Source: Eubacterium sp. An11 (GTDB lineage: Bacteria > Bacillota > Clostridia > Lachnospirales > Lachnospiraceae). From it: a DNA stretch of 51,671 nucleotides. The DNA lies in NCBI RefSeq assembly GCF_002161065.1, contig NZ_NFLV01000022.1:1-51671 (forward strand), read 5' to 3'. Within the stretch, counting starts at the first letter, position 1. Each line of letters starts with the position of its first letter. Positions 31,445 through 46,827 of this stretch are shown here, in pieces. Under the pieces are notes generated by a model. The model saw nothing but the letters and a program-made list of their open reading frames with translations, was not told where the DNA came from and ran no database searches. The position numbers were made by a program, and so were the translations under genes.

Positions 31445-31484
31445 CATCCATTCCTCCATTTTTATACTGAAGCAGTTCCGTATA

Positions 31485-31595: not shown

Positions 31596-31664
31596 ATCTC
31601 TCTCACTTCCGCCCATTCCGCTTCCCCGTCTCCTGCCGTATCTTCTTCGCAATACACCTCACTA

Positions 31665-31745
31665 TTAATCTTTTTTATTTATGCGATTAACGATCACACC
31701 CGCCACTACTGCCACAACAGCTACAATAATAATCTTCACACGCAT
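31665..31745 (-). CDS. 26-residue hydrophobic peptide
   Basis: A short ORF with a strong ribosome binding site (AGGAGG, about eight bases before ATG at 31745). It encodes MRVKIIIVAVVAVVAGVIVN ending RINKKD: one membrane helix flanked by basic residues. This layout is seen in small membrane proteins and type I toxins, but no antisense RNA or family match can be shown. It lies just upstream of the flavodoxin relic and may simply be part of that old operon. Confidence 0.45.
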   Translation of the reverse strand: MRVKIIIVAVVAVVAGVIVNRINKKD

Positions 31746-31973
31746 AGTGTTTTCCTCCTGTTCTTCATGATATTTATTTCAACAGCAATACGAGATTTAT
31801 GGAAACAGTGAAGCTGCACGCTCACAGGTTTCATAAATTTTGTCATACTGCTAGTTAAGGATATACGTCCGATATTTGAAAAATGTTCCATTTGTGTTTT
31901 AGTAATATTAATTGTCTATGCTGATTCATAACCTTCTTTAATTTTTGTATTGAAAGCATATAAGGGAATTATT

Positions 31974-32005
31974 TTAGAATTGTCTTAGAATTGTTTTAAA
32001 AACAT
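31974..32005. promoter_or_regulatory. Three 11-base-phased repeats
   Basis: TTAGAATTGT at 31974 and 31985, and a weaker TTAAAAACAT at 31996, are exactly 11 bases apart. This is the spacing of OmpR-type regulator sites. They lie upstream of the small peptide and flavodoxin relic on the minus strand. The bases 31746-31973 show no gene. Confidence 0.45.
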
Positions 32006-32033
32006 TAAAAAAAGAACCCCGTCTAGGATTCTT
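32006..32033 (-). terminator. Terminator of the membrane protein gene
   Basis: On the minus strand GAATCC pairs with GGGTTC around the stop codon, followed by TTTTTTT. Confidence 0.65.
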
Positions 32034-32919
32034 TCTTATTTCTTTTATAAGAATAGTAAATCATGCTGATTCCCAGAAGTGATATCAGGATACATGCCGC
32101 CATCCCGGTCATAGCATTCATCTGATTTATGTTCATTGTACTTCTCCCCTGAAAAGATGCAAGCATGGTCATTTGAAGTGTCAATACAGATACCAATGCG
32201 TCAGCCACACTTATATTACGAATCGTGATTAAAATAGGCGACTGGAGCTTTCTTACCTTTATCATATTTATCACAGATGTAATTATTTTGTAAAACGTAT
32301 ATGCCGCTATGGTTATAACCATGATTTCCGAATATCTTTTCGCTGTATCCTGCACAATAGTCAGTAAAACAACGCCACTTAAAGCAAGATTTAATAATAA
32401 AAGCAAGATACCCTCCGTTTTTATGACCGAAAGTTCCTTTTTTTTGACCAGGCTTTGATCTTCCATCCGTGATATTTTTCTTCCTGTATGCACTGCGTGA
32501 TAACGCATGATCCCAAGAAGGCTGTAATAAACAGCCATTGTTATAAACCATTCCGATTGATGCATAACCCCAAGCACACCATTATACACTGTGTACGCCA
32601 CATTGATTATAAATGTCGGCATAGTGGACAGAATGATCCGAAAAGTATAATCATCGAAAAACTTTTCTCCCAGAGGATTCCTTGTTATTGTAGAAACTAT
32701 TTTTTCAATGACTCCGTTTTTGAGATCCTGAACTAAAAATATACATGCCGTAACCAAAAAAACACCTGCCAGAATATAAACTGCTATACCGGCTATTTGA
32801 GGCAGCAATCCACCTCTTGCCTGCACAATAGACAAAACAGAAGCGACCACGGCTCCCGGATAAATCAAAAACTTCTTTTTCTCTTTTTGTTCTTCCTTAT
32901 CTTTCTCAGGCTCCCTCAT
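32023..32919 (-). CDS. Polytopic membrane protein of unknown function
   Basis: About 298 residues with a highly charged N-terminus (EPEKDKEEQKEKKK) and about seven hydrophobic helices, including IAGIAVYILAGVFLVTACIF, a central GILLLLLNLALSGVVLLTIV and a C-terminal ACILISLLGISMIYYSY. I do not recognise the family with certainty. A GTG at 32940 would add seven residues, but the ATG at 32919 has AAAGGTGA at proper distance. It is monocistronic, with its own terminator. Confidence 0.7.
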   Translation of the reverse strand: MREPEKDKEEQKEKKKFLIYPGAVVASVLSIVQARGGLLPQIAGIAVYILAGVFLVTACIFLVQDLKNGVIEKIVSTITRNPLGEKFFDDYTFRIILSTMPTFIINVAYTVYNGVLGVMHQSEWFITMAVYYSLLGIMRYHAVHTGRKISRMEDQSLVKKKELSVIKTEGILLLLLNLALSGVVLLTIVQDTAKRYSEIMVITIAAYTFYKIITSVINMIKVRKLQSPILITIRNISVADALVSVLTLQMTMLASFQGRSTMNINQMNAMTGMAACILISLLGISMIYYSYKRNKKES

Positions 32920-32940
32920 CTTTTTCACCTTTCTTTTCAC

Positions 32941-33332
32941 TCTTTATAGCCAGAAAGATTATAAGAGGGGATTGTTTGATTATCGTTTCAAAATTGTTTC
33001 TATAATATTAATTTTTACATTAGTTTCCTCATAGCTGATTACCGCCAGGATTCCAAAAAATAAGGCGGATATTTCCACATTTAAAATCTTTATCGGTATT
33101 TTTATATATCTCCCTATCGATCCTGGGGTATGCAGACCGTGGTTACTTTTCTGTCATCCATCTCGTTCTTCCCTGCCTTCCTGATCCGGTTCACAACGGA
33201 TATGTATTTTCAGCGTCTGCGGTTTTTTTCAAAAAAACTCAACTATAGATTCGTAGATATAACTTCATCATTATATCTATCTGCATTTGCAGAGGAATCT
33301 TCTCTTTTTGAATATTAAAAATTTTAATAGTA
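32941..33332. other. Gene-free stretch
   Basis: No recognisable gene, repeat or RNA. An open frame at 33130-33318 on the plus strand lacks a ribosome binding site and has no family-like motif. Confidence 0.5.
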
Positions 33333-33378
33333 AAAGGGTATGTACTTCTACATTTTGGCCAGTGTACATACCCTTTTT
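33333..33378. terminator. Terminator of the LysM gene
   Basis: AAAGGGTATGTAC (33333-33345) pairs with GTACATACCCTTT (33364-33376), 13 pairs, flanked by A/T runs on both sides, so it can serve both strands. It lies downstream of the LysM gene. Confidence 0.75.
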
Positions 33379-33458
33379 TAACTATCTTTAATCAATAATC
33401 GAATAGTATTATAAAATCGTGCTATTTATATTTTCCATATATATTGAACCGGAACAGC

Positions 33459-33872
33459 TTACTCGTAGTAAGGAACCAACAAGTAATTCCCTGCTGTGAT
33501 CTTATCGGAACCGAGCTGATTGCACCGCTTTACTTCATGAATATAATCGTAAATATCGTCAAAACCAGGATTCATATTGGCCTTGGCGATACTCCAGAGA
33601 CTGTCTCCCTTCTCAATCTCAATGACCTTATACTGTATATCACCCAGCTGCTGGTTAGCCTCCACCACCGGAGCGCCTGACGGCACCATGCCGGAAAAGA
33701 ATCCAAATCCGATAAAGAGAAGCATCACTGAGACTAAAAGAAAAAGAATCAGGCTTCTGCTGCGGAAGCTGGTCTCCTCCCTGACCATCGCACTACCGAC
33801 TGGTCTTCTGCCCCTGATGTTAGTCTGTCTCTGCTGAATCTTTCTGTTATATGTTCTTGCTCTTCCTTCCAT
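33459..33872 (-). CDS. LysM-domain membrane protein, YneA-like SOS division inhibitor
   Basis: A 137-residue protein with one helix (about 41-62) and an external C-terminal LysM domain (YKVIEIEKGDSLWSIAKANM, then KITAGNYLLVPYYE). In Bacillus, YneA is a LysM membrane protein divergent from lexA and induced in the SOS response to stop division. Here the gene has the same partner, orientation and architecture, and LexA-like boxes in the shared region. The division-inhibitor role is inference from this context. Confidence 0.85.
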   Translation of the reverse strand: MEGRARTYNRKIQQRQTNIRGRRPVGSAMVREETSFRSRSLILFLLVSVMLLFIGFGFFSGMVPSGAPVVEANQQLGDIQYKVIEIEKGDSLWSIAKANMNPGFDDIYDYIHEVKRCNQLGSDKITAGNYLLVPYYE

Positions 33873-33926
33873 CTCTTATCCCTCCACATTTTTACAGTTG
33901 TATATGAACACATATACAAGCAAAAC

Positions 33927-34114
33927 CAAACATATGTTTCAAACATTTGTTTGTATTATATCGAACATACTTTCTATTGTCAACAGATTTCGATGATTTT
34001 TTCGAACATATTTTCTTTTTATGCATCAGCGCTAAAAAAAGCGAAAACAGATTCGAAAACACTTGTTTTCTTTTTTGCAAAGTGATAAAATGAAAAGAAC
34101 AAAACATACGTTTG
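33927..34114. promoter_or_regulatory. Cluster of LexA (SOS) boxes
   Basis: Six sites resemble the Firmicutes box CGAACNNNNGTTCG. Four have both half-sites: CAAACATATGTTTC (33927), CAAACATTTGTTTG (33940), AAAACACTTGTTTT (34056) and AAAACATACGTTTG (34101). Two are one-sided: CGAACATACTTTCT (33962) and CGAACATATTTTCT (34003). The first pair adjoins the LysM gene, and the last two flank the lexA promoter. Such density suggests tight, graded control of both genes. Confidence 0.8.
34063..34091 (+). promoter_or_regulatory. lexA promoter
   Basis: TTGTTT (34063-34068), a 17-base spacer and TAAAAT (34086-34091) with TGA before it. The -35 lies inside one LexA box, and a second box starts just after the predicted transcription start. 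Confidence 0.6.
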
Positions 34115-34133
34115 ACTGAAAAGGAGTTGTGAT

Positions 34134-34760
34134 ATGAGTTACGGTAAGATTACACCTAAGCAACAGGAGATTCTCGAATTTATCAAAGAATCTATTTTGA
34201 ACCGTGGTTATCCGCCTGCTGTGCGGGAGATCTGTGAGGCGGTACATCTGAAGTCCACTTCATCTGTCCACTCTCATCTGGAGACCATGGAAAAGAACGG
34301 CTACATCCGCCGCGACCCGACGAAGCCGAGGGCTATAGAGATCATTGACGATAATTTTAATCTGACCAGAAGGGAGCTTGTCAATGTGCCGATCGTGGGT
34401 ACAGTGACTGCCGGTGAACCTATTCTGGCCGTTGAGAATATTGAAGGATATTTTCCGATTTCTCCGGAATTTCTGAAAAATAAGCAGACCTTTATGCTGA
34501 AAGTCAAGGGCGAGAGCATGATCAACGCCGGTATTTTCTCCGGTGACTATATTCTGGTGGAGGAGACGCCGACGGCTTCCGATGGCGAGATTGTCGTTGC
34601 CCTTGTGGAAGATTCTGTTACGGTGAAGCGTTTTTATAAAGAAGACGACTGTTTTCGCCTGCAGCCGGAAAATGACGCCATGGACCCGATTATTGTCCCT
34701 CAGAACACTCCTTTTTCTATCGTAGGAAAGGTAATCGGACTTTTCCGCATATTTAAATAA
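34134..34760 (+). CDS. lexA: LexA repressor
   Basis: A 208-residue repressor of the SOS regulon. The N-terminal winged helix runs over residues 1-70 (TPKQQEILEFIKESILNRGY). The self-cleavage bond is Ala93-Gly94 in GTVTAGEPI, and the catalytic pair is Ser128 (GESMINAG) and Lys165 (SVTVKRF). All key residues are present and the length is normal. The start follows AAAAGGAG. LexA-like boxes in its own promoter indicate autoregulation. Confidence 0.97.
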   Translation: MSYGKITPKQQEILEFIKESILNRGYPPAVREICEAVHLKSTSSVHSHLETMEKNGYIRRDPTKPRAIEIIDDNFNLTRRELVNVPIVGTVTAGEPILAVENIEGYFPISPEFLKNKQTFMLKVKGESMINAGIFSGDYILVEETPTASDGEIVVALVEDSVTVKRFYKEDDCFRLQPENDAMDPIIVPQNTPFSIVGKVIGLFRIFK

Positions 34761-34782
34761 TTCAACAATATCATATCAAAGA

Positions 34783-34868
34783 GTCCCGCCGCAGGAATTT
34801 ATCTTATGAGAGCTTCCTTTTCCGGAAACAGTTTTTTCTCATTGGTTCCTGAGGCGGGACCTTTTTAT
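34783..34868 (+). terminator. lexA terminator
   Basis: GTCCCGCC (34783-34790) with the following CAGGAA pairs with TTCCTG and GGCGGGAC (34853-34860), enclosing a long loop. The T-tract CTTTTTATTT is shared with the palindromic repeat. Confidence 0.85.
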
Positions 34869-34910
34869 TTCATAGGAAATTGCATTCCTATGAAATAAAA
34901 AACGCTCCGC
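34864..34910 (+). repeat. 47-base palindromic repeat, copy 1
   Basis: Perfect 15-base arms TTTATTTCATAGGAA (34864-34878) and TTCCTATGAAATAAA (34885-34899) surround ATTGCA, then AAA and CGCTCCGC. A nearly identical copy (about 45 of 47 bases) lies inverted at 43401-43447. Its first arm overlaps the T-tract of the lexA terminator. Confidence 0.85.
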
Positions 34911-34967
34911 GAGGATTGCACTGCGGCGGATAGGAAGATGCCGCTTTCGCGACCCGCCGCAGGCGGA

Positions 34968-34994
34968 GAATCCTGCTTTGCAGGATTCTTTCTT
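34968..34994. terminator. Terminator-like hairpin
   Basis: GAATCCTGC (34968-34976) pairs with GCAGGATTC (34980-34988) followed by TTTCTT. It is preceded by a GC-rich dyad (TGCGGCGG with CCGCCGCA, 34922-34961). It lies downstream of the zinc-ribbon gene on the other strand. Confidence 0.6.
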
Positions 34995-35025
34995 ATGTTT
35001 ATTATTTCAGAGCTGACGATCTTAC

Positions 35026-35412
35026 TCAGGTCCGGTGAATGGCTTTCCGACCACAGATCGGGCAGGTTACCTCCACTTTTCCCTTCTTTCTTGGAACACG
35101 GATATGCTTTCCACATCCTTTACAGGTGAATATCCGGTATTCTTTTCGCATGGCGAATCTTTTTTTCTGCAGACTGAAAAACTGCAGAAACTGTTGGTTT
35201 TCTTTTTGGCGTGCCGGCACATTTTTTGAAAACATGCGGAACAGAGAATATATGATTCCGCACAGAGCCAGCAGATAAAGTAGTGAACTGTTCAATATCA
35301 CAGAGAGCACGTACACGATGATGGAGACGATAAAAGTTACTCTGCATAATTCATCATTGCCGTTTCTCTGCTGCATAAAATTGGATAATTTCCATCTTAA
35401 TTTATCTATAAT
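35026..35412 (-). CDS. Zinc-ribbon membrane protein, apparent ATT start
   Basis: About 128 residues. Two hydrophobic helices (VTFIVSIIVYVLSVILN, SLLYLLALCGIIYSLF) precede a basic tail with a zinc ribbon: CKGCG and CPICG, 14 residues apart. Related Lachnospiraceae proteins begin M-x-DKLRWKL-like. Here AGGAGG (35426-35421) lies seven bases before ATT ATA GAT (35412), with no ATG, GTG or TTG in frame at that point. The frame is open further upstream to an ATG at 35457, but that lies inside the Hsp70 gene. It would be the last gene of the chaperone operon. Confidence 0.7.
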   Translation of the reverse strand: MIDKLRWKLSNFMQQRNGNDELCRVTFIVSIIVYVLSVILNSSLLYLLALCGIIYSLFRMFSKNVPARQKENQQFLQFFSLQKKRFAMRKEYRIFTCKGCGKHIRVPRKKGKVEVTCPICGRKAIHRT

Positions 35413-35437
35413 TCCTGCACCTCCTGAATCTGTCGTA

Positions 35438-37204
35438 CTAATTTCCGTACTGAGCAATAATATTTCCTGCCGAACGTTCCAGATTCTCCTTTGCCTGGCG
35501 GATGGCGGTCATGTCCTCCTCCGTCATCCGGTCCAGACGGAACCTGCCCATAAGTTTGGACAGAGCGTTTATATCACTCTTTACCTGTTTTTTAACCGGA
35601 CGTTCAATCTGTTTTCCGCCGTTTTTCAAAGCACGCTGTGCCTGACTTAACACTTTCTGAGCATCTCCTGTCAGGGCGATTGCTTCTTTTCTTAAATTAT
35701 CCATACCGGCGTACTGCTGTGCATCCCGAATGGCCTGTTCGATTTCCGCATCGCTCATCCGGTCGTCGGCGGTGATGGTGATGGACTGTTCTTTGCCCGT
35801 ATCCAGATCTCTGGCGGAAACTTTCAGAATACCATTGGTATCGATATCAAAGGTTACTTCAATCTGCGGCACACCCGCAGGAGCCCGCCGGATGCCTTTC
35901 AGACGGAACTTTCCGATGGTCTTATTGTCCTTTGCCATAGGGCGTTCGCCCTGCAGCACATGAATTTCCACATCCCTCTGGTATGGAGCGGCCGTGGAGA
36001 ACACACGGGAATATTTGGTCGGCAGAGTGGTATTTCTCTCCACCAGACGAGTGGCCACACCTCCCACAGTCTCGATGGACAGGCTCATCGGCGTCACGTC
36101 AAGGAGAAGCAGATCGGAACCTGCCACAGCCAGGGAATTGCCCTCCAGAGTATTGCCGAGCACAGCGGCGCCCATGGCCACGCACTCGTCGGGATTGATG
36201 TTCCGGGATGGTTCTTTTCCTGTGAGCAGGCGCACCTTTTCCTGCACGGCAGGGATCCGGGTGGAACCGCCCACTAAAAGAACACGACCCAGCTCTGAGG
36301 CGGCAATGCCGGCGTCACTGAGCGCCTGCTGCACCGGAGCGGCGGTTCTCTCCACCAGATCCTGGATCAGTTCCTGAAACTTTGTTCTGGTGAGAGTGGT
36401 CTCCAGATGAACCGGCGTTCCTTTCGCCTGCATCAGATACGGAAGGACAATGCTGCTGCTCTGGGCGGTGGACAGTTCTTTCTTTGCCTGTTCCGCAGCC
36501 TCACGGATTCGCTGCATGGCTGTGAAATCTCCCGACGGATCCACATGATTCTGGTTCTTACATTCAGCAACCAGCCACCGGACGATTCTTTCATCAAAAT
36601 CATCGCCGCCCAAATGGTTATCGCCGGCCGTCGCCAGCACTTCAATGACGTCGTCGCCGATCTCAATGACAGAGACATCGAAGGTACCTCCGCCCAGGTC
36701 ATAGACCATAACTTTCTGAGCTTCTCCATGGTCAAGACCATATGAAAGAGCGGCGCTGGTCGGCTCGTTGATGATTCTCTTCACATCCAGCCCGGCGATT
36801 CTGCCCGCATCCTTGGTAGCCTGCCTCTGCACATCATTGAAATATGCCGGAACGGTAATGACCGCCGAAGTGACCGGCTCACCGAGAAATTCTTCCGCAT
36901 CTTTTTTCAGCTGCATGAGGATCATGGCGCTGATGGTCTGCGGTTTGTAATCCTTTCCATCAATACGGATACTCCAGTCTGTGCCCATTTCTCTCTTCAC
37001 AGAGCTTATAGTGCGGTCCGGATTTGTGGCCGCCTGTCTTCTTGCCACATCTCCCACCAGACGTTCTCCCTTTTTGGTAAATGCCACAACGCTGGGAGTG
37101 GTCCTTGCTCCGGAACTGTTCGGCACAATGACCGGCTGTCCGTTTTCCACCACAGCAACACAGCTGTTGGTGGTTCCCAGGTCAATTCCTATTGTTTTGC
37201 TCAT
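35438..37204 (-). CDS. Hsp70 chaperone (DnaK paralogue)
   Basis: A 588-residue Hsp70. The ATPase domain has [18 protein letters not shown], the phosphate-2 motif [17 protein letters not shown] and [13 protein letters not shown]. The substrate-binding beta domain ([20 protein letters not shown]) and a shortened helical lid follow. The C-terminal EEVD-like or acidic DnaK tail is absent, so it is slightly shorter than the housekeeping DnaK. No grpE or hrcA is next to it, which marks it as a second, dedicated Hsp70. The start at 37204 follows GGAGGAATAAAT. It is co-directional with a J-domain protein that probably serves it. Confidence 0.93.
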
Positions 37205-37257
37205 ATATTTATTCCTCCATCTATGTAAATGTGTCTCTGAACAAATGCATCTTTCTG

Positions 37258-38040
37258 TCAGCAACGGCAGAACAGGCAGCAGAACTGCATGATCATAAAT
37301 GCTGTACAGAAACGGCCCATACCTTCGGCATATTTCTGAAATTCCTGACCGGTCTCGTTATATGTACTGCCGGACTGGCTCATACTCTGCATGGCGTTTT
37401 GGTATACCGTATTTCCCGGCTCCATCTGTACCGCCCTCTGGATCTGCTCCATGGCAAGTATGGCATTTCCCTGCCCGTAATTGGCCAGGGCGCTCAGATA
37501 ATACCACCGGGCATTCCGTCCGCTGCTGACCACGGTATTTAATCCCTGGACAGCGTAAGCGTAACGTCCGGCGTTGATATTCTGCACAGCCTGACGGATC
37601 ACATCACTGTCTCCCGGCTGTACCGTCGGACCGGCCGGCCCGTAAGAGGCACGGCCGAAGCCGCCGAAAATATCGTCGAAATCAAAAGGCCCGTAACCGC
37701 CATAGCCCCCGTTTCCATTGCCGTAGCCGCCATTGCCATAATTTCCATAACCGCCGCCGTAGCTCTGCTGTCCCTGCCGGTTTCCATATGGACTGCCATA
37801 GGGATTGCCCTGACTGCCATAGGCATTTCTGCCGGCGTTTTGTGCCTGACGCTGATATTTCTCGGGATTGTTGATCATATCATAGGCCTCATTGATTTCA
37901 TTCATTTTCTCAGTGGCACCCGGATCATTGGGATGAAGATCCGGATGATACTTTTTCGCCATCTTCCGGTATGCCTTTTTTATCTCTTCCTTGCTGGCGT
38001 CCCTGGACACACCAAGGACTTTATACGGGTCATCAACCAT
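37258..38040 (-). CDS. J-domain protein with Gly/Tyr-rich linker
   Basis: A 260-residue co-chaperone. The J-domain covers about residues 1-70 ([20 protein letters not shown]) with the HPD tripeptide in [10 protein letters not shown] low-complexity Gly/Tyr/Asn linker (about 85-135) leads to a helical, TPR-like domain ([20 protein letters not shown]). The tail is Cys-rich (FCCLFCRC). The zinc fingers of classic DnaJ are absent. The start at 38040 follows AAAGGAGA and overlaps the end of the DUF5685 gene by eight bases. Confidence 0.9.
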
Positions 38041-38860
38041 GTCTGGTCTCCTTTCCTCTGAACTTTGCGTAATATTTCTGCCAAACGCCTCCGTAAAGAA
38101 CATTTCGGATCAAATGTTCATCGGTGACGATAGGCAGTTTTTCGAATTCATCAGCGGCCACGCTGATACAGGAGGTCAGAATCTCTTCTGTCTCCTCCGG
38201 CTTTTTTTTCATATAAAAAAGAGGATTATAATTCTGTTTTCTTCTGTCCTTCTTATAATCCATGGCGGCATCCATCAGGTAGATAAAACGCCCCAGAGAA
38301 AATCCAAATTTCCGTAAGCTGTCACTCCAGAAATCTTTCTCATCATAGACAAATACTTCTGACAGCATTTTTCCGGACAGATTGACCGCCTGATCCGTCT
38401 GCTCCGGGGCATGTTTTTCCACTTCAGCGAGGAGTTCCAGGCTCTCCCTGATATTTCTGCACTGCCTTTCGTAGCGTGCTTCCACCTCCCTGTACTTTTC
38501 TTCCAAAAGCTTACTGTAAGCGAGACGGGTGCGCTTTTTTTCATCCTCCCAGTCGTCAAGACATTTATAATACGCCAGAGCCACTGTCATATCCGCCGCA
38601 TAATCAATATATTTATTATGAAGAAATGTTCTGTCTTTCAAAGGGTGTACCGGGCAGCGGTACTGTGCCCGTTTTTCTTCCGGCTCATAGAGGGCAGTCA
38701 GAAACAGCGCCAGAAATGTCATATCAAAATTCAGGGAAAATCTGGACAGCTGTCCGTATCGGTTTCGCAGACTGTGACAAATTCCGCAGTACATCTGCTG
38801 GTATCGTTTCAGTTCCTCTTCCGACAGTCCTTTTTTATTACAGATGATATATCCAAACGT
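38033..38860 (-). CDS. DUF5685-family protein, apparent ACG start
   Basis: A protein of about 275 residues of the DUF5685 type found with J-domain/Hsp70 genes. Conserved features are the N-terminal [19 protein letters not shown], and the helical AKHAPE-like middle. The expected N-terminus [20 protein letters not shown] is present in frame, but its initiator position is ACG (38860-38858), eight bases after AAAGGAG. The first ATG in frame (38794) would cut off this conserved part. So either ACG is used, the start codon is mutated, or the base is misread. The cysteines may bind a metal. Function is unknown. Confidence 0.78.
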
Positions 38861-38908
38861 CGCAATCGCTCCTTTCTTTCCATTTCTCCATAATTAAACA
38901 ATATCAAC

Positions 38909-38989
38909 CTCAAATTTATCTCAACTAATCCTCAATTTCCATTGAGATTTTCTTACTTTTTTGTTACTCTTGCAATAAATACATATTTT
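38909..38989 (+). promoter_or_regulatory. Phased repeats and promoter of the second two-component system
   Basis: CTCAA occurs at 38909, 38920 and 38931, exactly 11 bases apart, with the reverse TTGAG at 38942. TTGTTA (38961-38966), a 17-base spacer and TATTTT (38984-38989) follow. This fits OmpR-type autoregulation. Confidence 0.6.
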
Positions 38990-39004
38990 GCATGGAGGAA
39001 TGAT

Positions 39005-39688
39005 ATGTTTAAAATACTCGTGGTGGAAGATGATAACAGTCTGAAACGCCTATTTTGTAAAACACTGGAAAAAAATAATTTTATTACTTTTCCGGCTGAG
39101 AGCGCCGCAGAGGCTCTGGATATTCTGGACGAGGAGTCCATCGACCTGATCATCACAGATATCATGATGCCGGGAATCGACGGTTTCGATTTTATCCGGC
39201 AGCTGAGAGACGCTAATATTGATCTTCCGGTCCTCATTATCACAGCCAAGAGCGATATTATGGACAAACAGACAGGATTTCAGGCCGGCGCTGACGACTA
39301 TATGGTCAAACCCATTGATATTCATGAGATGGTGCTGCGGGTCAACGCTCTCCTGCGCCGTGTAAAGAGCGTCAGCGAGCGGAGGCTTACCTTTGGCGGC
39401 ACCTGCATGGAATACGATACCTGGACAGTGACTGATAATACAGGGACAAAGATTCTCCCCCAGAAGGAATTTCAACTGCTCTACAAAATGCTCTCTTATC
39501 CGGGACAGATTTTTACCAGACAGCAGCTCCTTGATGATGTATGGGGGATGAATAATTACGAAGATTCCCATACTCTTGATGTGCATATCAGCCGTTTGAG
39601 AGAGAGATTCAAGGAAAATACAGATTTTAAGATCGTGACCATACGTGGTCTTGGATATCGGGTGATAAAAAATGAAGAAAAAAATTGA
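39005..39688 (+). CDS. OmpR-family response regulator
   Basis: A 227-residue regulator with an intact receiver domain (acidic pocket VVEDD, phospho-acceptor in LIITDIMMPGIDGF, conserved Lys in VKPIDIHEM) and a winged-helix output domain ending FKIVTIRGLGYRV. ATG at 39005 follows GGAGGAATGAT. The end overlaps the kinase gene by 17 bases. Confidence 0.95.
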   Translation: MFKILVVEDDNSLKRLFCKTLEKNNFITFPAESAAEALDILDEESIDLIITDIMMPGIDGFDFIRQLRDANIDLPVLIITAKSDIMDKQTGFQAGADDYMVKPIDIHEMVLRVNALLRRVKSVSERRLTFGGTCMEYDTWTVTDNTGTKILPQKEFQLLYKMLSYPGQIFTRQQLLDDVWGMNNYEDSHTLDVHISRLRERFKENTDFKIVTIRGLGYRVIKNEEKN

Positions 39689-40745
39689 AAAATGGAAAGC
39701 TTCTGATCTCTGGAAGCTCCGCAAACGTTTTACCCTGACTTTTTTTGTAATCATATTGCCGTTTTTCTTTCTGATACCGGGCATCTTCTATTTTCTGGCC
39801 CGAAATGGAATCTCTGTGGGAATCGTCAGCGTTCCCATCACTATCACCTTTGTGCTCATCGGTCTGTTATGTTTTCTTCTGGGATATGTGATTTCTTTTT
39901 TTCTGATGCGTCATGTATTCCATCCTCTGGAACAATTGAGTAACGCCTCCCGTCAGATTGCCCGGGGCGATTACAGCGCGCAGATTGAATATAAGGGCAA
40001 TATCGAAGAAATCCGGACAACCATCGATAATTTTAATTTTATGGCAAAGGAGCTGAACTCCGTGGAAATCATGCGCAATGACTTCATAGCAAATGTATCT
40101 CACGAATTTAAGACCCCATTGTCCTCCATTGCCGGATATGTCACCCTCCTGCAGGATTCCGATCTGTCAGAAAGTGAACGAAATGAATATATTCAGATGG
40201 TCTTTTTTAATATCGAAAAACTCAACGATCTGACCAGCAATATCCTGCAGCTTTCCCGCCTGGAGAATCAAAACGCATTAAAAAAACCGGTGCATTACCG
40301 GCTGGATGAACAAATCCGGGAGGCCATTGTGCTGCTGGAGCCCAAATGGAGCCAGAAGCGGATCACCATGGATGTAGATCTGCAGGAGCTTTCCTACACC
40401 GGACAGTCAGCCCTCTTATTCCAGGTCTGGACCAATCTCATCGGAAACGCTATCAAGTTCTCCAATCCGGATTCTTCCATTTCCATCACCCTGCGGCGGT
40501 ACCATGACGATCTCACCGTGACGGTAGCTGACCGCGGCATCGGCATGACGGAGGAAACCCGCAAACACATTTTTGAGAAATTCTATCAGGGCGATTCCTC
40601 CAGAAAGGAACAAGGAAACGGCCTGGGACTCGCCATCTGCAAAATCATCCTCGATCTGTGCGGCGGAGATATCCATGTGGCCAGCGAGCCTGGAAAAGGC
40701 AGTGTCTTTACTGTTCGGCTGCCGGCTGCCGAATCAGAAGAATAA
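39672..40745 (+). CDS. Sensor histidine kinase
   Basis: A 357-residue kinase with two helices near residues 20-45 and 52-78 and almost no external loop between them, so it senses within the membrane or through a partner. A HAMP domain, the phospho-acceptor box SHEFKTPLSS and a full ATP-binding domain (NAIKFSNP, DRGIGM, FEKFYQGD, GLGLAI) follow. Short-loop kinases of this kind often sense cell-envelope stress. It pairs with the regulator just upstream. Confidence 0.94.
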   Translation: MKKKIEKWKASDLWKLRKRFTLTFFVIILPFFFLIPGIFYFLARNGISVGIVSVPITITFVLIGLLCFLLGYVISFFLMRHVFHPLEQLSNASRQIARGDYSAQIEYKGNIEEIRTTIDNFNFMAKELNSVEIMRNDFIANVSHEFKTPLSSIAGYVTLLQDSDLSESERNEYIQMVFFNIEKLNDLTSNILQLSRLENQNALKKPVHYRLDEQIREAIVLLEPKWSQKRITMDVDLQELSYTGQSALLFQVWTNLIGNAIKFSNPDSSISITLRRYHDDLTVTVADRGIGMTEETRKHIFEKFYQGDSSRKEQGNGLGLAICKIILDLCGGDIHVASEPGKGSVFTVRLPAAESEE

Positions 40746-40811
40746 ATGACACAAAAAAGCATACAGAGAACGGCTCCGGACGAACAGAAATATGTCGTAT
40801 AATCCAGATAA

Positions 40812-40844
40812 ACCCGGATGTCGTTATTCTGACGATATCCGGGT
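40812..40844. terminator. Hairpin between the kinase and ftsH
   Basis: ACCCGGAT (40812-40819) pairs with ATCCGGGT (40837-40844), with an extra inner TCGT/ACGA pairing. T-tracts are weak. It probably separates the two convergent units. Confidence 0.6.
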
Positions 40845-40863
40845 CTGTCTGATCGGTCTGTTG

Positions 40864-42678
40864 TTATGCATTCAAAATATTCATAAACTGTTCGCCGGTG
40901 ATGGTCTCTTCCTTATACAGGAAGGATGCCAGCTCATCCAGCTTCTGACGATTATCTGACAGGATTCCGAATGCTTTTTCATGCTGCTTTTTCACCAGTT
41001 CCACTACTTTTTTGTCAATTTCTCTCTGAGTTTCCGCAGAACAGGTCATGCTGGTATCATCCCCCAGATATGGGTTGGTCTGGGTCTCCATAGCCACCAT
41101 GTCAAACTCTTCGCTCATACCGTAGCGGGTGATCATAGCCCGGGCGAGCTTCGTTGCCTGTTCAATATCGTTGGAAGCGCCGGTAGTCACTGACCCAAAG
41201 ATCAGTTCCTCTGCAGCACGTCCGCCGGTCAGGGTGGCTATTTTGTTCTCCATCTCTTCTTTACTCATGAGATAATGATTTCCTTCTTCCACCTGCATGG
41301 TATATCCCAGAGCACCGGATGTCCTTGGTACAATGGTAATCTTCTGCACCGGAGCAGAATTGGTCTGTCTGGCTGCCACCAGAGCATGACCCACCTCATG
41401 ATAAGCGACAATCTTCTTTTCTTTATCGGTGAGAATGGCGTTCTTCTTCTGATAACCTGCAATGACAACTTCAATGCTTTCCTCCAGATCCGCCTGGGTG
41501 ACAAACTGTCTGCCGTCACGGACTGCCCGCAGTGCAGCCTCATTGACAATATTGGCAAGTTCCGCGCCGGAAGCACCGGAAGCCATGCGCGCCACCTTAT
41601 TATAATCAATGTTGTCGGCCACTTTAACCTTTTTGGCGTGTACCTTTAAGATATCTTCCCGTCCTTTCAGATCCGGGAGCTCCACCGGAACACGGCGGTC
41701 AAACCGTCCCGGACGAAGAAGCGCCGGGTCCAGAGATTCCGGACGGTTGGTGGCCGCCAGGATGATGACGCCGGTATTCTCCTCAAATCCGTCCATCTCT
41801 GTGAGCAGCTGATTCAAGGTCTGTTCCCGCTCATCATTGCCGCCGTACTGCCCGTTTCGCTTCTTTCCAATGGCGTCGATCTCATCAATGAAAACGATAC
41901 ACGGGGCTTTTTCTTTGGCCTGTCTGAATAAGTCTCGTACTTTGGAAGCGCCCATGCCCACGAACATCTCCACAAATTCCGAACCGGACATGGAGAAAAA
42001 CGGCACGTTGGCTTCGCCGGCCACAGCCTTTGCCAGCATGGTCTTACCGGTTCCGGGAGGGCCCACCAGCAGGATTCCTTTCGGCATGGATGCGCCGATA
42101 TCTTTGTATCTGTCAGGATTATGCAGATACTCCACAATCTCCGTGAGATTCTCCTTGGCCTCGTCTTCGCCGGCCACATCGGAAAAACGGATACCCTCCG
42201 AGGATTTGACATAAATCTTGGCGTTGCTTTTTCCCATACCAAAAGTCATGAAATTATCTCCGCCGGCCCGGTTCATCATCTTCTTGGACATATACTGACC
42301 GATGAGCACAAAGATAAGGATCGGCAGGATCCAGCTTAAAAGAATGGTCAGGATCGGAGAAGACTGCCGTATTTCCTGTCCGGAAAAAGAAATGCCTGCG
42401 TCATGAAGACGCTGGGTAAGCCCATTGTCTTCCACCATAGCCGTCTTATAAATCTTATCATCTTTATCTGTAAAATAGATCAGATTTTCCTGGGCATCAA
42501 TCTCCACCTCATCGATCTGTTTGTTATCTGTCATGGTCATAAAAGTGCCATAATCCACTTCTTTAATCTGCCGTTCCATAATCAATGGACGGGCAAGGGC
42601 ATTGAAAAGAATCAGGCAGATTACCACGATACAATAGTAAAAAATCAGGGGTACTTTCGGTTTTTTTACTTCTTTCAT
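40864..42678 (-). CDS. ftsH: ATP-dependent zinc metalloprotease FtsH
   Basis: A 604-residue membrane protease. Two helices (about 10-32 and 107-130) flank a short external domain. The AAA module has Walker A GPPGTGKT, Walker [13 protein letters not shown] and the SRH region [19 protein letters not shown]. The zinc site is HEVGH. The start at 42678 follows GGAGGTAATGTGC. The position next to the kinase and not near the usual hpt/tilS genes suggests that it may be one of two FtsH copies. Confidence 0.95.
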
Positions 42679-42701
42679 GCACATTACCTCCATTTTTGCA
42701 T

Positions 42702-42730
42702 ATCATAATAACTTTAGCAAAAAACAACAA
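42702..42730 (-). promoter_or_regulatory. ftsH promoter
   Basis: On the minus strand TTGTTG (42730-42725), a 17-base spacer and TATGAT (42707-42702). Confidence 0.55.
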
Positions 42731-42761
42731 AAGATATCATTTATAAATTTACAAATATGTC

Positions 42762-42790
42762 TTGACAAAAATTGAATTTTGTCATAAAAC
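42762..42790 (+). promoter_or_regulatory. TetR gene promoter with overlapping operator
   Basis: A consensus -35 TTGACA (42762-42767), a 17-base spacer and TAAAAC (42785-42790). TGACAAAA and TTTTGTCA form an inverted repeat (42763-42784) filling the space between the two elements, the typical position of a TetR autoregulatory operator. Confidence 0.7.
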
Positions 42791-42813
42791 ACCAGTATAG
42801 GAGAGTGAGAACA

Positions 42814-43344
42814 ATGACAGAATCTTTAAAAGACCGGATTGCAGAAGCGTTTCTTACCTTAATCAGACAGAAAAACATAGACAAAATTTCAGTAAAAGAT
42901 CTGGCGGATCACTGCCATATTTCCAGACAAAGTTTTTATTATCATTACCGGGATATCCTGGAAGTGATTGAATGGATCTTAAACCGGCGTCTGGAAAAAC
43001 TTCTGACCAGAAACCTCCAGTGTCAGACCCAGGAAGAAGCGGTGGAGGTATTTCTGGAATTTTCCCAGATGAACCGGACCTTTATCCATAAACTTCTGGC
43101 GTCAAAATATCACGATATCCTCGCCCCCATGCTCATCAAATCTCTGAAAAGATATCTGCAGGAATTTTTTCGTCTGCGGCTCAGTGATTCTGCCATGAGC
43201 TACGCGGATACGAATATCACTCTGAATTTCTGCGCTTACGGCCTCTTAGGGCTGCTCCTCGAGAATTCCTGCGGAGACAACAAAGAAAATAAAAAGAACG
43301 CCGTTCAACAAATATGCAGGGTTTTATCTAAACTTTTCGATTAA
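42814..43344 (+). CDS. TetR-family regulator
   Basis: A 176-residue repressor with the N-terminal helix-turn-helix (KISVKDLADHCHISRQSFYY, then HYRDILEVIEWIL) and a helical ligand domain of normal length. ATG at 42814 follows AGGAGAG. It is divergent from ftsH, and the shared 135-base region holds both promoters. It may also affect ftsH. No efflux gene is adjacent. The effector is unknown. Confidence 0.9.
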   Translation: MTESLKDRIAEAFLTLIRQKNIDKISVKDLADHCHISRQSFYYHYRDILEVIEWILNRRLEKLLTRNLQCQTQEEAVEVFLEFSQMNRTFIHKLLASKYHDILAPMLIKSLKRYLQEFFRLRLSDSAMSYADTNITLNFCAYGLLGLLLENSCGDNKENKKNAVQQICRVLSKLFD

Positions 43345-43400
43345 GACCGGTTTCATGGAAGATTTTCATCAAAAATTTTCCCATGAAAATGTCCGGAATA

Positions 43401-43447
43401 GCGGAGCGTTATTTATTTCATAGGAATGCAGTTTCCTATGAAATAAA
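43401..43447 (-). repeat. 47-base palindromic repeat, copy 2
   Basis: The inverted counterpart of the element at 34864-34910: GCGGAGCG, TTA, then arms TTTATTTCATAGGAA (43412-43426) and TTCCTATGAAATAAA (43433-43447) around TGCAGT. On the minus strand it directly follows the T-tract of the rsfS terminator. Confidence 0.85.
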
Positions 43448-43454
43448 TAAAAAA

Positions 43455-43482
43455 GGCCTGCAGCGCTTAGTGCTGCAGGTCC
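43455..43482 (-). terminator. rsfS terminator
   Basis: GGCCTGCAGC (43455-43464) pairs with GCTGCAGGTCC (43472-43482). On the minus strand it is followed by TTTTTTATTTATT. Part of the stem encodes the last codons of rsfS. Confidence 0.85.
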
Positions 43483-43823
43483 TCTTTTGTAACCGGCTTT
43501 CCATCTCTCCAGATTCGTTCCAGATCATAGAATCCACGGTCTTCTTTACTGAATACATGGACGATCACATCTTTGTAATCCATCAAGATCCAGTTGGCTG
43601 TCTGATATCCTTCAATCTGCTTTGGCTCATATCCGGCTCTGCCCAGCGCTTCCTCCACGCTGTCTGCCATGGCCTGAACCTGATTTCGGTTATTTCCATC
43701 AGCAATGACAAAATAATCAGCCAGCACAGAAATCTCACTGATATCCAGGATTGTGATATCTTCTGCCTTCTTATCTTCCAGGGCGTCAATGACAATCTGT
43801 GTCATCTTTTTTGATTCTTCCAC
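43467..43823 (-). CDS. rsfS: Ribosomal silencing factor RsfS
   Basis: A 118-residue protein of the Iojap family that binds L14 and blocks subunit joining in slow growth. Conserved parts are DITILDISEISVLADYFVIA, the NRNQVQAMADSVEEAL helix and NWILMDYKDVIVHVF. The length is normal. It is the last gene of the ribosome/NAD cluster, three bases after yqeK. Confidence 0.95.
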   Translation of the reverse strand: MEESKKMTQIVIDALEDKKAEDITILDISEISVLADYFVIADGNNRNQVQAMADSVEEALGRAGYEPKQIEGYQTANWILMDYKDVIVHVFSKEDRGFYDLERIWRDGKPVTKEDLQH

Positions 43824-43825
43824 GG

Positions 43826-44410
43826 TTACACCTCCTGATTCCTCATTCTGTATATTCTGTAGTACTCCCAGGTCCGTCGGGTCATCGGATCGGTGGTACT
43901 TTTTTTGTTGGATAAATATTTTATGCTGTCCTCAAGAATCTGACAGAGACATTCGTCCAAATCCTTAAAGGCCAGCTCCCTCACTTCCGCAAGATTCGGC
44001 GCCTGATTCCGGTTTGGCTCCAGATAATCCGCCACATACACGATTTTATCTAACAGCGACATATCCGGTTTGCCGGTGGTATGCCAGGTAATAGCTGAGA
44101 GAATCTCCGGATCAGCAATGCCGTATTTGACGTTGGCAAAGCAGGCGCCCAGTTTGGCGTGGAGAAGTTCGGGGTTCTTCTTCTCATATTTGGAAATCGG
44201 CATACCATATCGCTTGCTGTATGCGATCTTATCTTCCGCTGAGAGATATTTGGCGCAGTCATGGAGCAGCCCTGCCATTCTGGCCTTTTCCATATCGGCG
44301 CCGTAACGCATGGCAAGACAAGCGGACGTATATTCCACTCCCAGCGTGTGTTCAAATCGTTTTTCTGATAAAAGGTTTTTTAAATCTTTTCTGATTTCCT
44401 CTCTGGTCAT
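43826..44410 (-). CDS. yqeK: HD-domain hydrolase YqeK
   Basis: A 194-residue HD-domain protein. Metal ligands are visible as His in FEHTLGVEYTS, the HD pair in LLHDCAKYL, and a later His in ITWHTTGKP. Characterised YqeK proteins hydrolyse diadenosine tetraphosphate. It lies between nadD and rsfS, the standard order in Firmicutes. Confidence 0.95.
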   Translation of the reverse strand: MTREEIRKDLKNLLSEKRFEHTLGVEYTSACLAMRYGADMEKARMAGLLHDCAKYLSAEDKIAYSKRYGMPISKYEKKNPELLHAKLGACFANVKYGIADPEILSAITWHTTGKPDMSLLDKIVYVADYLEPNRNQAPNLAEVRELAFKDLDECLCQILEDSIKYLSNKKSTTDPMTRRTWEYYRIYRMRNQEV

Positions 44411-44424
44411 TGGTACGCTCCCAT

Positions 44425-45036
44425 CTACATGACATAAAGCTTGTGTTCATAAATATAATCTGCCACCTCCCGGGGAAGCAGATAACGGATGCTCTCGCCT
44501 GCCTGCACCCGCCGTCGGATATCATTGGATGAAATCTCCAGGCTGGGCGAGTTCAGGAAATGGATGGAGGCATCGTATTTATTTTCGATATATTCAATCT
44601 GACTGTTTAGGGAACTGGACAGGTCTCCGCGGCCGGCCACCAGAATGACCGCCATTCGGAGAACATCCGCCGTGTCTTTCCAGGATTCAATATGGTAAAG
44701 CGAATCTGCCCCCATGATAAAATAATAGTCACAGTCAGGATTTTTACGGGTCAGATTTTTAAGAGTTTCCACTGTATAAGTGGTCCCTTCCCGGTTTAAT
44801 TCTTCTCCGGAAAAAGTAAAATGAGCGTTATCTCTGATGGCAAGCTTCACCATCTGCACCCGGTCTTCCTCCGTCACACTGTTGCCAAGCTTTTTATAAT
44901 AAGGATTCTTGGTTGGCATGAAAAGAACTTCATCCAGGGAGAACTGATGATACGCTGTCTCCGCCAGAAGAAGATGACCGAAATGGATGGGATTAAATGT
45001 ACCGCCCATGATACCGATCTTTTTTTGTCTGCTCAT
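44425..45036 (-). CDS. nadD: Nicotinate-nucleotide adenylyltransferase
   Basis: A 203-residue enzyme that adenylylates nicotinate mononucleotide in NAD synthesis. Motifs are GGTFNPIHFGH (nucleotidyl-transfer HxGH), YYFIMGADSLYHIESW and the C-terminal ISSNDIRRR. Length and neighbours are standard. Confidence 0.96.
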   Translation of the reverse strand: MSRQKKIGIMGGTFNPIHFGHLLLAETAYHQFSLDEVLFMPTKNPYYKKLGNSVTEEDRVQMVKLAIRDNAHFTFSGEELNREGTTYTVETLKNLTRKNPDCDYYFIMGADSLYHIESWKDTADVLRMAVILVAGRGDLSSSLNSQIEYIENKYDASIHFLNSPSLEISSNDIRRRVQAGESIRYLLPREVADYIYEHKLYVM

Positions 45037-45053
45037 ATCAGCCTTCTCCCGTT

Positions 45054-45341
45054 TTACGGCAGTGTAATTTTACTGTCTTCCTTTGCCTGTTTAAATAACA
45101 CGATTTTCTTTCCGATGACCTGCACCACCTCAGAACGGGTTCTCTCCGCCAGGATCTGTGCCAGCTCCTTCGGATCATCGAAACAGTTTTTGAGAACCGA
45201 TATTTTGATCAGCTCTCTTTTATCAATGGCCTCCCGTACCGCATCGATGATCTCCGGTGTCAGGGATGCCTTGCCGATCTGAAAAATCGGGTCCATTGTC
45301 ATGGCAAGACCTTTTAAATAGGCTCTCTGCTTACTTGTCAT
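45054..45341 (-). CDS. yhbY: YhbY-type CRM RNA-binding protein
   Basis: A 95-residue CRM-domain protein that associates with pre-50S ribosomes. It starts MTSKQRAYLKGLAMTMDPIF and has the GKASLTPEIIDAVREAI and VQVIGKKIVLFK segments of the family; the GxxG loop is VIGK. It lies between obgE and nadD. Confidence 0.94.
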   Translation of the reverse strand: MTSKQRAYLKGLAMTMDPIFQIGKASLTPEIIDAVREAIDKRELIKISVLKNCFDDPKELAQILAERTRSEVVQVIGKKIVLFKQAKEDSKITLP

Positions 45342-45421
45342 TTCTTTCTCCTTTTATATTTTTACAGCAAATGTATGAATCTATGCAGGCGTTCCCCGGT
45401 TACGGTCCGCTGTACCTGCTT

Positions 45422-46711
45422 TTATTTATAGTAGTCAAACTCCAGATTATATAAGCGCACGGTGTCGCCTTCCTCGATGCCGAGCTCCTCCAGACGTGCA
45501 AGGACACCATTTTCCTTCATAAACTTCTGGAAAAACTCAAAGCCCTTCTCAGATTCCAGGTTGGTGTAGCCAAGCATTCGTTCCACCTTCGGGCCTTCCA
45601 CCGTAAATACGCCCGGTTCTGCCATGGCAACCACGATGGACTCCGCCGGTTCTTCCTGCTGCATCTCAAAGAAGTATTCCTGTTCAAACTCCACCGGCTC
45701 TTCCGGAAGTTCTTTGAGAAGCGTATTGACATGCCACAAAAGCTCCTTTAATCCCTTGCCGCTGACTGCGGATATCGGGAAAACCTTAATACCCTGTGGT
45801 CCGAATTCCTCTTCCAGCATCTCCACGATCAGCTGGCAGTCTTCCTCGCTCATGGCGTCGATCTTGTTGGCGGCAATCACCTGCGGCCGTTTCGCCAGCT
45901 CCGGATTGTAAGAAGCCAGTTCCTGGTTGATGGCCTTGATATCTGCAATGGGATCTCTTCCCTCCACAGAAGCCGCATCCACCATATGGATCATCACTTT
46001 GGTCCGCTCAATGTGCCGCAGGAACTCCAGTCCAAGGCCCACGCCTTCAGATGCCCCTTCGATGATTCCAGGAATGTCGGCGATGACAAATCCATTGCCT
46101 TCCGCCAGATCCACCACGCCAAGATTTGGATTCAAAGTGGTGAAATGATAGTTGGCGATCTTTGGTTTTGCGTTGGTGACACGGGAAAGAAGTGTGGATT
46201 TACCCACGTTCGGGAATCCAACCAGTCCCACATCGGCAATGACCTTAAGCTCCAGGTCCACCCAGAGCTCCTTGGCTTCCTGTCCCGGCTGGGCGTACTT
46301 TGGCGCCTGCATGGTGGCTGTGGCATAATGCTGATTGCCTTTGCCGCCACGGCCGCCCTTCAATAACACCACCGGTTCTGTCCGGTTAGCCATATCAAGA
46401 ATGACCTTTCCGGTCTCCGCATCCTTGATAACAGTTCCGGCCGGAACTTTCAGAATCATATCCTCTCCGCTTGCGCCGGTACAGCGGCGCTTGGAGCCTT
46501 CCTTGCCGTCGCCGGCACAATATTTCCTTTTATGACGAAAATCCACGAGAGTATTGAGTCCCGGGTCCACGACGAATATCAAATCGCCGCCCTTGCCGCC
46601 GTCCCCTCCATCAGGACCGCCGTCCGGAACGTAAAGCTCTCTTCGAAAGCTGACATGCCCGTCCCCGCCCTTGCCAGAACGGATAAAAATGCGCGCACGG
46701 TCTGCAAACAT
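45422..46711 (-). CDS. obgE: GTPase ObgE
   Basis: A 429-residue ribosome-assembly and stress GTPase. The Gly-rich Obg fold (GGDGGKGGDLIFVVDPGLNT) is followed by the G domain (G1 GFPNVGKSTL, G3 DIPGIIEGA, G4 ANKID) and a C-terminal OCT domain (ERMLGYTNLESEKGFEFFQK). Length and order relative to rpmA are standard. Confidence 0.97.
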   Translation of the reverse strand: MFADRARIFIRSGKGGDGHVSFRRELYVPDGGPDGGDGGKGGDLIFVVDPGLNTLVDFRHKRKYCAGDGKEGSKRRCTGASGEDMILKVPAGTVIKDAETGKVILDMANRTEPVVLLKGGRGGKGNQHYATATMQAPKYAQPGQEAKELWVDLELKVIADVGLVGFPNVGKSTLLSRVTNAKPKIANYHFTTLNPNLGVVDLAEGNGFVIADIPGIIEGASEGVGLGLEFLRHIERTKVMIHMVDAASVEGRDPIADIKAINQELASYNPELAKRPQVIAANKIDAMSEEDCQLIVEMLEEEFGPQGIKVFPISAVSGKGLKELLWHVNTLLKELPEEPVEFEQEYFFEMQQEEPAESIVVAMAEPGVFTVEGPKVERMLGYTNLESEKGFEFFQKFMKENGVLARLEELGIEEGDTVRLYNLEFDYYK

Positions 46712-46827
46712 CGATGATACACTTCCTTTCTGTCTGTTACTTATGTTTTTGGTGAGCAGCCCCTGTTATTATTATGAGACGGCCGTCACCTTTTCATCTG
46801 ATCTATAACGATTTATTTCATAAAGAA

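What the first reader, a model, noticed from the sequence alone, without database searches (positions are those of the whole stretch)
34864..43447. A 47-base palindromic element present twice, each time fused to a terminator
Copies at 34864-34910 and 43401-43447 (inverted) share perfect 15-base arms, a near-identical six-base loop and an outside CGCTCCGC block (about 45 of 47 bases). In both, the first arm begins in the T-tract of a strong terminator, that of lexA on the plus strand and that of rsfS on the minus strand. An 11-base half (TTTATTTCATA, 46812-46822) also lies beside the rpmA hairpin. This looks like a dispersed REP/MITE-like family that targets or extends terminators.
Basis: partly seen in the sequence, partly recalled or inferred. 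Interest (0 to 1): 0.72.

Follow-up and report, generated by a model that had tools for sequence, protein, structure and literature searches.

The report
Mobile repeat seated behind transcription terminators
The pair of palindromes is the visible tip of an unnamed family of small mobile DNA repeats in gut bacteria that sits right behind the T-run of transcription stop signals, apparently because a run of A's inside each repeat matches that T-run.

Summary
The second copy is cut off after CGCTCCGC. The host genome holds at least 45 places (E<1e-6), and Lachnospiraceae relatives carry subfamilies with other palindrome arms. The Rfam scans gave no match in the element. Its fold covaries: 197 double-change cells against 42 in shuffles. 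In 36 of 42 host copies it abuts a strong stem plus T-run, against 63 of 300 control T-runs; the right end never does (0 of 22). Orthologous terminators lacking the element already have T-runs; at glyA and an HPr-like gene one relative carries a different subfamily at the same terminator. The new finding is a length rule: the number of conserved T's left of the element equals the number of A's behind its palindrome (2, 3, 5 or 6), and only A5-6 kinds sit mostly at terminators. I read it as a non-autonomous mobile element that finds targets by A-run/T-run pairing. The enzyme is unknown; neither Y1 transposases nor group II maturases clearly track the copies. New variant of a known kind.

The parts
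34844..34866 (+). lexA terminator: stem 34844-34861 and T-run TTTTT (target site of copy 1)
   Evidence: scan; sequence; lexA identity
34861..34996 (+). full-length element, copy 1 (about 135 nt, T-run included)
   Evidence: covariance model R1, 144.7 bits; flank comparison of 30 host loci
34867..34896 (+). P1 inner palindrome ATTTCATAGGAA-loop-TTCCTATGAAAT; arms differ between species but stay complementary
34897..34902 (+). A6 run, complementary to the terminator T-run; proposed target guide
34903..34911 (+). P2 hairpin CGC-TCC-GCG; loop could pair with GGA of AGGAA downstream
   Evidence: loop pairing 84.7% of cells, no double changes, so unproven
34917..34965 (+). P3/P4 stem with internal AGGAA loop (GCAC-TGCGGCG...GCCGC/GCGAC...CGCCGCA-GGCG)
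34966..34994 (+). P5 hairpin AGAATCCTGC/GCAGGATTCT followed by TTTCTT; itself terminator-like
   Evidence: tandem second palindrome right behind it in L021 and L048
43401..43450 (-). truncated copy 2: P1 plus CGCTCCGC; run is AAATAA facing TTATTT (a paired change on both sides)
43449..43479 (-). rsfS terminator stem and T-run in front of copy 2
   Evidence: rsfS identity
46812..46822 (-). possible remnant: half arm behind the L27 (rpmA) terminator stem
   Evidence: not provable

Best explanation
A family of small, non-coding, non-autonomous mobile elements. Each copy lies immediately 3' of a T-run, in one orientation, without doubling it. The element carries a palindrome followed by an A-run; the A-run is complementary to the T-run on the other side of the palindrome, so element and target together close one long hairpin. 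I infer that this pairing selects the target: subfamilies with A5-6 need T5-6 and therefore land behind intrinsic terminators, while subfamilies with A2-3 land at short T-runs elsewhere. Pairing looks maintained at DNA level, which suggests single-stranded DNA handled in trans by an unidentified enzyme. SHOWN: dispersal, juxtaposition and orientation in most copies, covariation, the length rule, orthologous sites without the element that already have T-runs, and different subfamilies at the same orthologous terminators. INFERRED: that the T-run belongs to the target rather than to the element, that the pairing acts during insertion, that the intermediate is ssDNA, and that the enzyme acts in trans.
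For: Copies: 45 distinct places at E<1e-6 in the host genome (46 rows less one mirror row; 150 of 1405 candidates were scored, so a lower bound). Terminators: stem of -8 kcal/mol or better abutting the T-run in 36 of 42 host copies, median -17.1, against 63 of 300 control T5+ runs, median -4.4; right flank read on the other strand: 0 of 22 with stem and T4+. By run length: 11 of 12 A5-6 copies from the named-genome scan, but 3 of 20 type B, 2 of 9 type C and 2 of 16 type D. Length rule (122 elements): T fraction falls from 0.87 at position 2 to 0.40 at position 3 for A2 (n=15), from 0.93 at 3 to 0.37 at 4 for A3 (n=41), and for A6 (n=30) stays at 0.87 or more to position 6, then 0.70 and 0.20. 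Sites without the element: lexA in G022, G020 and G013 and others, several with the T-run present. glyA: G002 carries its own arm type at the same terminator, 5 other genomes nothing; HPr-like gene: G020 a different subfamily, 5 others nothing (gene names). T's can be absent: one of 16 near-identical type D copies has AAA there. No T-run doubling: 2-8 T in 26 copies. Covariation. DNA-level pairing: G-T 46 against A-C 54 after setting aside one consensus G-T column of 39.
Against: No enzyme found: no element at 30 of the 41 listed Y1 places that were examined, and copy number does not follow Y1 genes (Spearman -0.21, p 0.32). The length rule alone would also hold if the T's were carried by the element as the other strand of the palindrome. 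T positions depart from T in 10 of 198 cells, A positions from A in 4 of 198, p 0.17, so target origin rests mainly on the sites without the element. Window copy 2 has a paired change on both sides (TTATTT/AAATAA), which fits T's carried by the element, or template-switch correction. No site without the element is close enough to fix the junction to the base. Six of 42 host copies lack a stem of -8 kcal/mol. Type D shows no replication-strand bias (8 against 8, or 7 against 9 if the terminus lies right of the copy at 1,517,934; strands, skew), unlike what lagging-strand transposition predicts.
Confidence: 0.58

Rival explanations
1. An IS200/IS605-type (Y1/HUH) passenger: the ends are subterminal hairpins cut and joined as single strands by a resident or past TnpA, with target choice by base pairing as in IS608.
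For: IS608 inserts 3' of a short target that it recognises by base pairing, keeps it as left flank, and its target was lengthened by design by pairing sequence 3' of the left hairpin with sequence 5' of the target (passages of PMC5934647): the same geometry as here. Hairpins at both ends. Equal G-T and A-C departures. Weak: a 17-nt likeness (E 0.18) of the type D left part to an IS605 left end in G017.
Against: No element at the 30 Y1 loci examined of 41 listed; 8 of 20 genomes with copies have no Y1 hit, 7 of these 8 being under 90% complete; only partial Y1 matches in the host; no R1 match better than E 0.3 at the IS605 stretches examined; no strand bias.
Confidence: 0.3
2. RNA-guided retro-insertion, working like a group IIC intron: the A-run acts like an exon-binding sequence on the T-run behind a terminator and a reverse transcriptase copies the element.
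For: Group IIC introns insert after intrinsic terminators and pair with the 5' exon (passages of PMC4424553). The host, with the most copies, has 3 maturase-domain hits and G020 has 2. One host copy directly follows a group II intron 3' end (L230). Truncated copies mostly keep the T-run side (by eye).
Against: No group II RNA match in the element; 136 nt is too short for the known catalytic core (recalled); maturase-domain hits in only 4 of 24 genomes, 2 of them below the cut-off, none in G005 with 21 copies or G018 with 14; no G-U excess that RNA folding would leave.
Confidence: 0.14
3. Not guided: any insertion survives best just behind a terminator, and palindrome arms are kept matched by template switching or by selection for bidirectional termination.
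For: Space behind terminators is safe (inference); P5 plus TTTCTT is itself terminator-like; copy 2 has a matched change on both sides.
Against: Subfamilies with A2-3 are mostly not at terminators in the same bacterial family; exact juxtaposition and single orientation; copies directly behind T-box leaders (L222, L223, L054), which normally control a following gene (recalled; those genes not checked); mismatched T-runs were not corrected (9 of 33 copies have a non-T, 8 of them with A6 intact).
Confidence: 0.15
4. A structured noncoding RNA gene or 3'-UTR regulator spread by duplication, with termination or RNA stability as its job.
For: Conserved multi-hairpin fold with a possible TCC/GGA loop contact; many copies behind terminators, three next to the Rfam RNA Clostridiales-1.
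Against: No G-U preference on either strand; orthologous sites without the element; near-identical copies with unrelated flanks.
Confidence: 0.1

Closest known systems
IS608 and the IS200/IS605 family
   Same: Insertion 3' of a short target kept as left flank, hairpins near both ends, target chosen by base pairing with element DNA (PMC5934647, passages)
   Different: No gene inside, no Y1 gene linked at the loci examined; the guide-like run lies 3' of the left palindrome (an engineered feature in IS608); no strand bias in G005
Group IIC introns
   Same: Sit immediately after intrinsic terminators and pair with the left flank (PMC4424553, passages)
   Different: No catalytic intron RNA found, no maturase hit in 20 of 24 genomes, pairing looks DNA-level
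bcr1-type repeats of the Bacillus cereus group
   Same: Small dispersed repeats in tens of copies per genome with a T-rich motif TTTAT (PMC6542083, passages)
   Different: Other bacteria; no terminator bond or guide-length rule in the passages seen; sequences not compared here; the original bcr1 paper is not held
Clostridiales-1 RNA (RF01699)
   Same: Structured repeat with 10 matches (9 over cut-off) in the same genome, directly behind the element in three places
   Different: Different sequence; the element itself does not match the model

Membership tests
MITE (non-autonomous DNA transposon) | Short, non-coding, many dispersed copies | tested here: met
   135 nt, 45 places, unrelated flanks
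MITE (non-autonomous DNA transposon) | Terminal inverted repeats | tested here: not met
   Left end ATTTCATAGG and right end GGATTCTTTCTT are not inverted repeats (by eye); type C may differ
MITE (non-autonomous DNA transposon) | Target-site duplication | tested here: inconclusive
   None seen by eye in sites with and without a copy; orthologs too diverged to exclude a short one
REP/BIME with RAYT | 20-40 nt palindrome with GTAG or CGTC tag | tested here: not met
   Unit of 135 nt; no such tag at the palindrome foot (by eye); tag definition from title and abstract of PMC3733652 in a search listing and recall
REP/BIME with RAYT | RAYT gene flanked by the repeats | tested here: not met
   No R1 match at the 30 Y1-family loci examined, of 41 listed in the genus
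IS200/IS605-derived element | Hairpins near both ends; insertion 3' of a fixed motif in one orientation | tested here: met
IS200/IS605-derived element | Same ends as an autonomous Y1 element | tested here: not met
   only a weak left-end likeness of type D to one IS605
IS200/IS605-derived element | Lagging-strand orientation bias | tested here: not met
   8 against 8 (or 7 against 9) in G005 type D, small sample; bias as a family trait is recalled
Group IIC intron | Insertion after terminators with 5' flank pairing | tested here: met
Group IIC intron | Catalytic intron RNA (domain V) and maturase | tested here: not met
   No Rfam match in the element; maturase-domain hit in 4 of 24 genomes, the host among them
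Any Rfam RNA family | Match to a curated covariance model | tested here: not met
   No match above gathering score in the element; two chance-level hits on the palindrome of L054 below the cut-off

The most novel reading that the evidence does not exclude
A family-wide class of minimal guided mobile elements: an A-run in the element is the guide, the target's T-run is the address, and changing the run length (2, 3, 5-6) moves the subfamily from ordinary T-runs to transcription terminators. The enzyme would be of a kind not recognised here, since neither Y1 transposases nor group II maturases clearly follow the copies.
Probability: 0.3. Interest if true: 0.85.

Novelty: new variant of a known kind. 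Interest (0 to 1): 0.66.

Why it matters
It explains a dispersed structured repeat that is widespread in a major gut family yet not found in Rfam, and it gives a natural, quantitative sign that a mobile element chooses targets by base pairing whose length sets the niche. If true, terminators (including those of T-box leaders) are a recurrent landing place for DNA, and the guide can be tested by changing six bases. It also warns that 'structured RNA' calls by covariation in these genomes can be DNA elements.

Tried and rejected
Rfam scans (window 30000-47500; fetched loci): no match in the element above a gathering score. IS605 right ends or omega-RNA as ancestor of the core: a look-alike GCGAGGAT stretch gave no model match, dropped. 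Y1 linkage and Y1 correlation: negative. Group II maturase: 4 of 24 genomes, the host included. Composite transposon between the two window copies: rejected, because G022, G020 and G013 share the lexA neighbour but lack the element. Agreement of the purine after the left and right junctions: none seen by eye. Target-primed retro-insertion from truncation: truncated copies mostly keep the T-run side (by eye), suggestive only. A first T-versus-A count mixed both orientations of the palindrome; I replaced it. The type C rows include two mirror rows (9 real of 11); one search is the cleaner table. Literature: the listings of searches showed no report of this family (titles and abstract starts seen); (PATE and IS200/IS605 terms) failed and was not repeated in that form. 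No preprints and few subscription journals are held, so absence from print is not shown.

Dropped rows: one search used 42 of 47 host places at hand (29 of 30 loci, 12 of 16 places, and window copy 2; left out: L041, L232, L233 and the second place of L226, which lack the palindrome, and L235, which has it). One search kept only elements with a recognisable core and at least 10 of 11 matched arm bases. One search used 48 chosen sequences.
Full report
What is there. The two 47-base palindromes exist as described. Searching the host genome for the exact palindrome gave 16 places, each found on both strands, and their flanks share much more than 47 bases. With a 135-nt consensus, BLAST listed 80 pieces, many of them the palindrome seen on both strands; the first look scored 40 of 67 candidates. 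Thirty loci printed side by side show one unit: host stem, T-run, palindrome, A-run, a TCC-loop hairpin, a GC-rich branched stem with an AGGAA internal loop, and a last hairpin followed by TTTCTT and a purine; several copies are truncated. A covariance model finds 45 distinct places at E<1e-6 (46 rows less one mirror row; 150 of 1405 candidates scored). In the window it finds 34861-34996 (144.7 bits) and the truncated copy at 43316-43450 (50.9 bits), plus the mirror images.

Distribution. With the consensus, 23 of 61 genomes match: the host, 14 of 23 others of the genus, 8 of 13 of the rest of the family, and 0 of 24 of other families of the order. With the model, 20 of 24 genomes of the genus have copies at E<=1e-8. 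Among phage records 32 of 50,697 match; the 20 rows listed come from human faecal samples, and the five fetched are marked unverified. One of 72,556 plasmids matches, from Roseburia.

Structure. In 48 aligned copies of the terminator-bound kind, 25 of 30 predicted pairs show changes on both sides with the pair kept. For the structure I named, 93.4% of cells pair, with 197 double-change cells against 41.9 in shuffles and 14-64 when slid. Arm sequences differ from species to species. The loop contact TCC/GGA pairs in 84.7% of cells without double changes, so it stays a guess. Departures G-T (85, of which 39 are one consensus column) and A-C (54) are about equal: no sign that the RNA of one strand is what is kept. 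Both strands fold far better than shuffles as DNA (z -8.1 and -9.6).

Terminators. For 42 host copies the best stem ending at the T-run has median -17.1 kcal/mol and is -8 or better in 36 (-6 or better in 40); for 300 of 380 T5+ runs of the window the median is -4.4 and 63 reach -8 (107 reach -6) (the controls include true terminators). The right flank of 22 full-length copies, read on the other strand, has a stem of -8 with T4+ in none, so the orientation to terminators is one-sided. Some are ends of T-box leaders (L222 and L223, L054), some end tRNA clusters (L029; L036, L221).

Sites without the element. Downstream of lexA, G022, G020 and G013 have the same neighbour gene and a terminator-like stem but no element; G022 and G020 have a T5 run there. 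Six further sites were compared in up to six relatives (read by eye; gene names). The nitroreductase site has an unoccupied terminator with T5 in G020. The RNase Y gene (rny) is unoccupied in four orthologs, and in G002 has an arm-like remnant behind its T-run. The pseudouridine-synthase site (L033) is unoccupied in all six. glyA (serine hydroxymethyltransferase) is unoccupied in five and filled in G002 by an element with G002's own arms. The HPr-like site is filled in G020 by a different subfamily and unoccupied in the other five, with the same terminator recognisable in G022 and G007. The L017 site holds decayed copies in G022 and G020. The T-run left of 26 host copies is 2-8 T long, so it is not doubled. 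No target duplication was seen, but divergence prevents proof.

The length rule. Other Lachnospiraceae carry relatives with the same core but other palindromes: type B (AACTCAGTCGG, A3), type C (ATAGTAAGCGC, A2), type D (ATCTCAGTCGAG, A3, 16 near-identical copies in G005). Over 122 elements the fraction of T at positions left of the palindrome stays high up to the number of A's right of it and then falls: A2 0.93, 0.87, then 0.40; A3 0.95, 0.98, 0.93, then 0.37; A5 at least 0.88 to position 5, then 0.64 and 0.44; A6 at least 0.87 to position 6, then 0.70 and 0.20 (A1, A4 and A7 have 4, 5 and 2 members; the A3 class takes in the type D copies of G005, which are near-identical). Terminator stems of -8 or better abut 11 of 12 A5-6 copies of the named-genome scan, but 3 of 20 B, 2 of 9 C and 2 of 16 D, close to or below the control rate of 63 in 300. 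So the niche follows the run length.

Are the T's target or element? The length rule alone cannot tell, since T's carried by the element as one strand of the palindrome would also match. For target: orthologous sites without the element that have T-runs, no doubling, and one of 16 type D copies with AAA instead. Against or open: among 33 host copies the T positions depart 10 times in 198 and the A positions 4 times in 198, p 0.17, and window copy 2 has TTATTT facing AAATAA, a matched pair of changes. I weigh this as favouring target, not as proof.

Mechanism. IS608 offers the closest working model: insertion 3' of a short target found by base pairing, and an engineered extension in which bases 3' of the left hairpin pair with bases 5' of the target (PMC5934647, passages). 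Group IIC introns offer the closest target: intrinsic terminators (PMC4424553, passages). Neither enzyme is clearly tied to the element: no copy at the 30 Y1 loci examined of 41 listed, no correlation with Y1 genes over 24 genomes (rho -0.21), maturase-domain hits in 4 of 24, though the copy-rich host is one of them. Type D in the single-contig genome G005 lies 8 to 8 on leading and lagging strand (strands, skew sampled; 7 to 9 if the terminus lies right of the copy at 1,517,934). I therefore commit to 'guided by A-run/T-run pairing, DNA-level, enzyme in trans unknown'.

Judgement. As a kind it is a small palindromic mobile repeat, as many bacteria have (recalled); the guide-length rule and terminator niche are what is new, as far as the searches listed under Tried and rejected show.

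Noticed in passing
window 34134-43823: In many relatives lexA and rsfS are convergent neighbours (by eye); in the window they are 8.7 kb apart and each is followed by a copy of the element. G022, G020 and G013 share the new lexA neighbour without the element, so the rearrangement need not involve it.
   Followed up: partly
L222 813-975, L226 835-950 and 1064-1179: Rfam's Clostridiales-1 RNA abuts the element directly downstream three times, has 10 matches (9 over cut-off) in the host genome, sometimes in tandem, and some have matching ends (TAACCACC/GGTGGTTA): it looks like a dispersed repeat too.
   Followed up: partly
L222, L223, L054: Element directly behind the terminator of a T-box leader, where read-through would be needed to express a following gene (the genes were not checked).
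   Followed up: no
L230 1114-1179: A group II intron 3' end directly abuts the element's left end, at the T-run junction; the contig ends there.
   Followed up: no
L060, L112: Two type A palindromes have a longer apical loop with its own small hairpin and shared AGACCTTG motif, perhaps an older or larger form.
   Followed up: no
L021 about 1634-1665, L048 about 1634-1670: A second palindrome begins right behind the element's own last hairpin and TTTCTT, as if that hairpin also served as a target.
   Followed up: no
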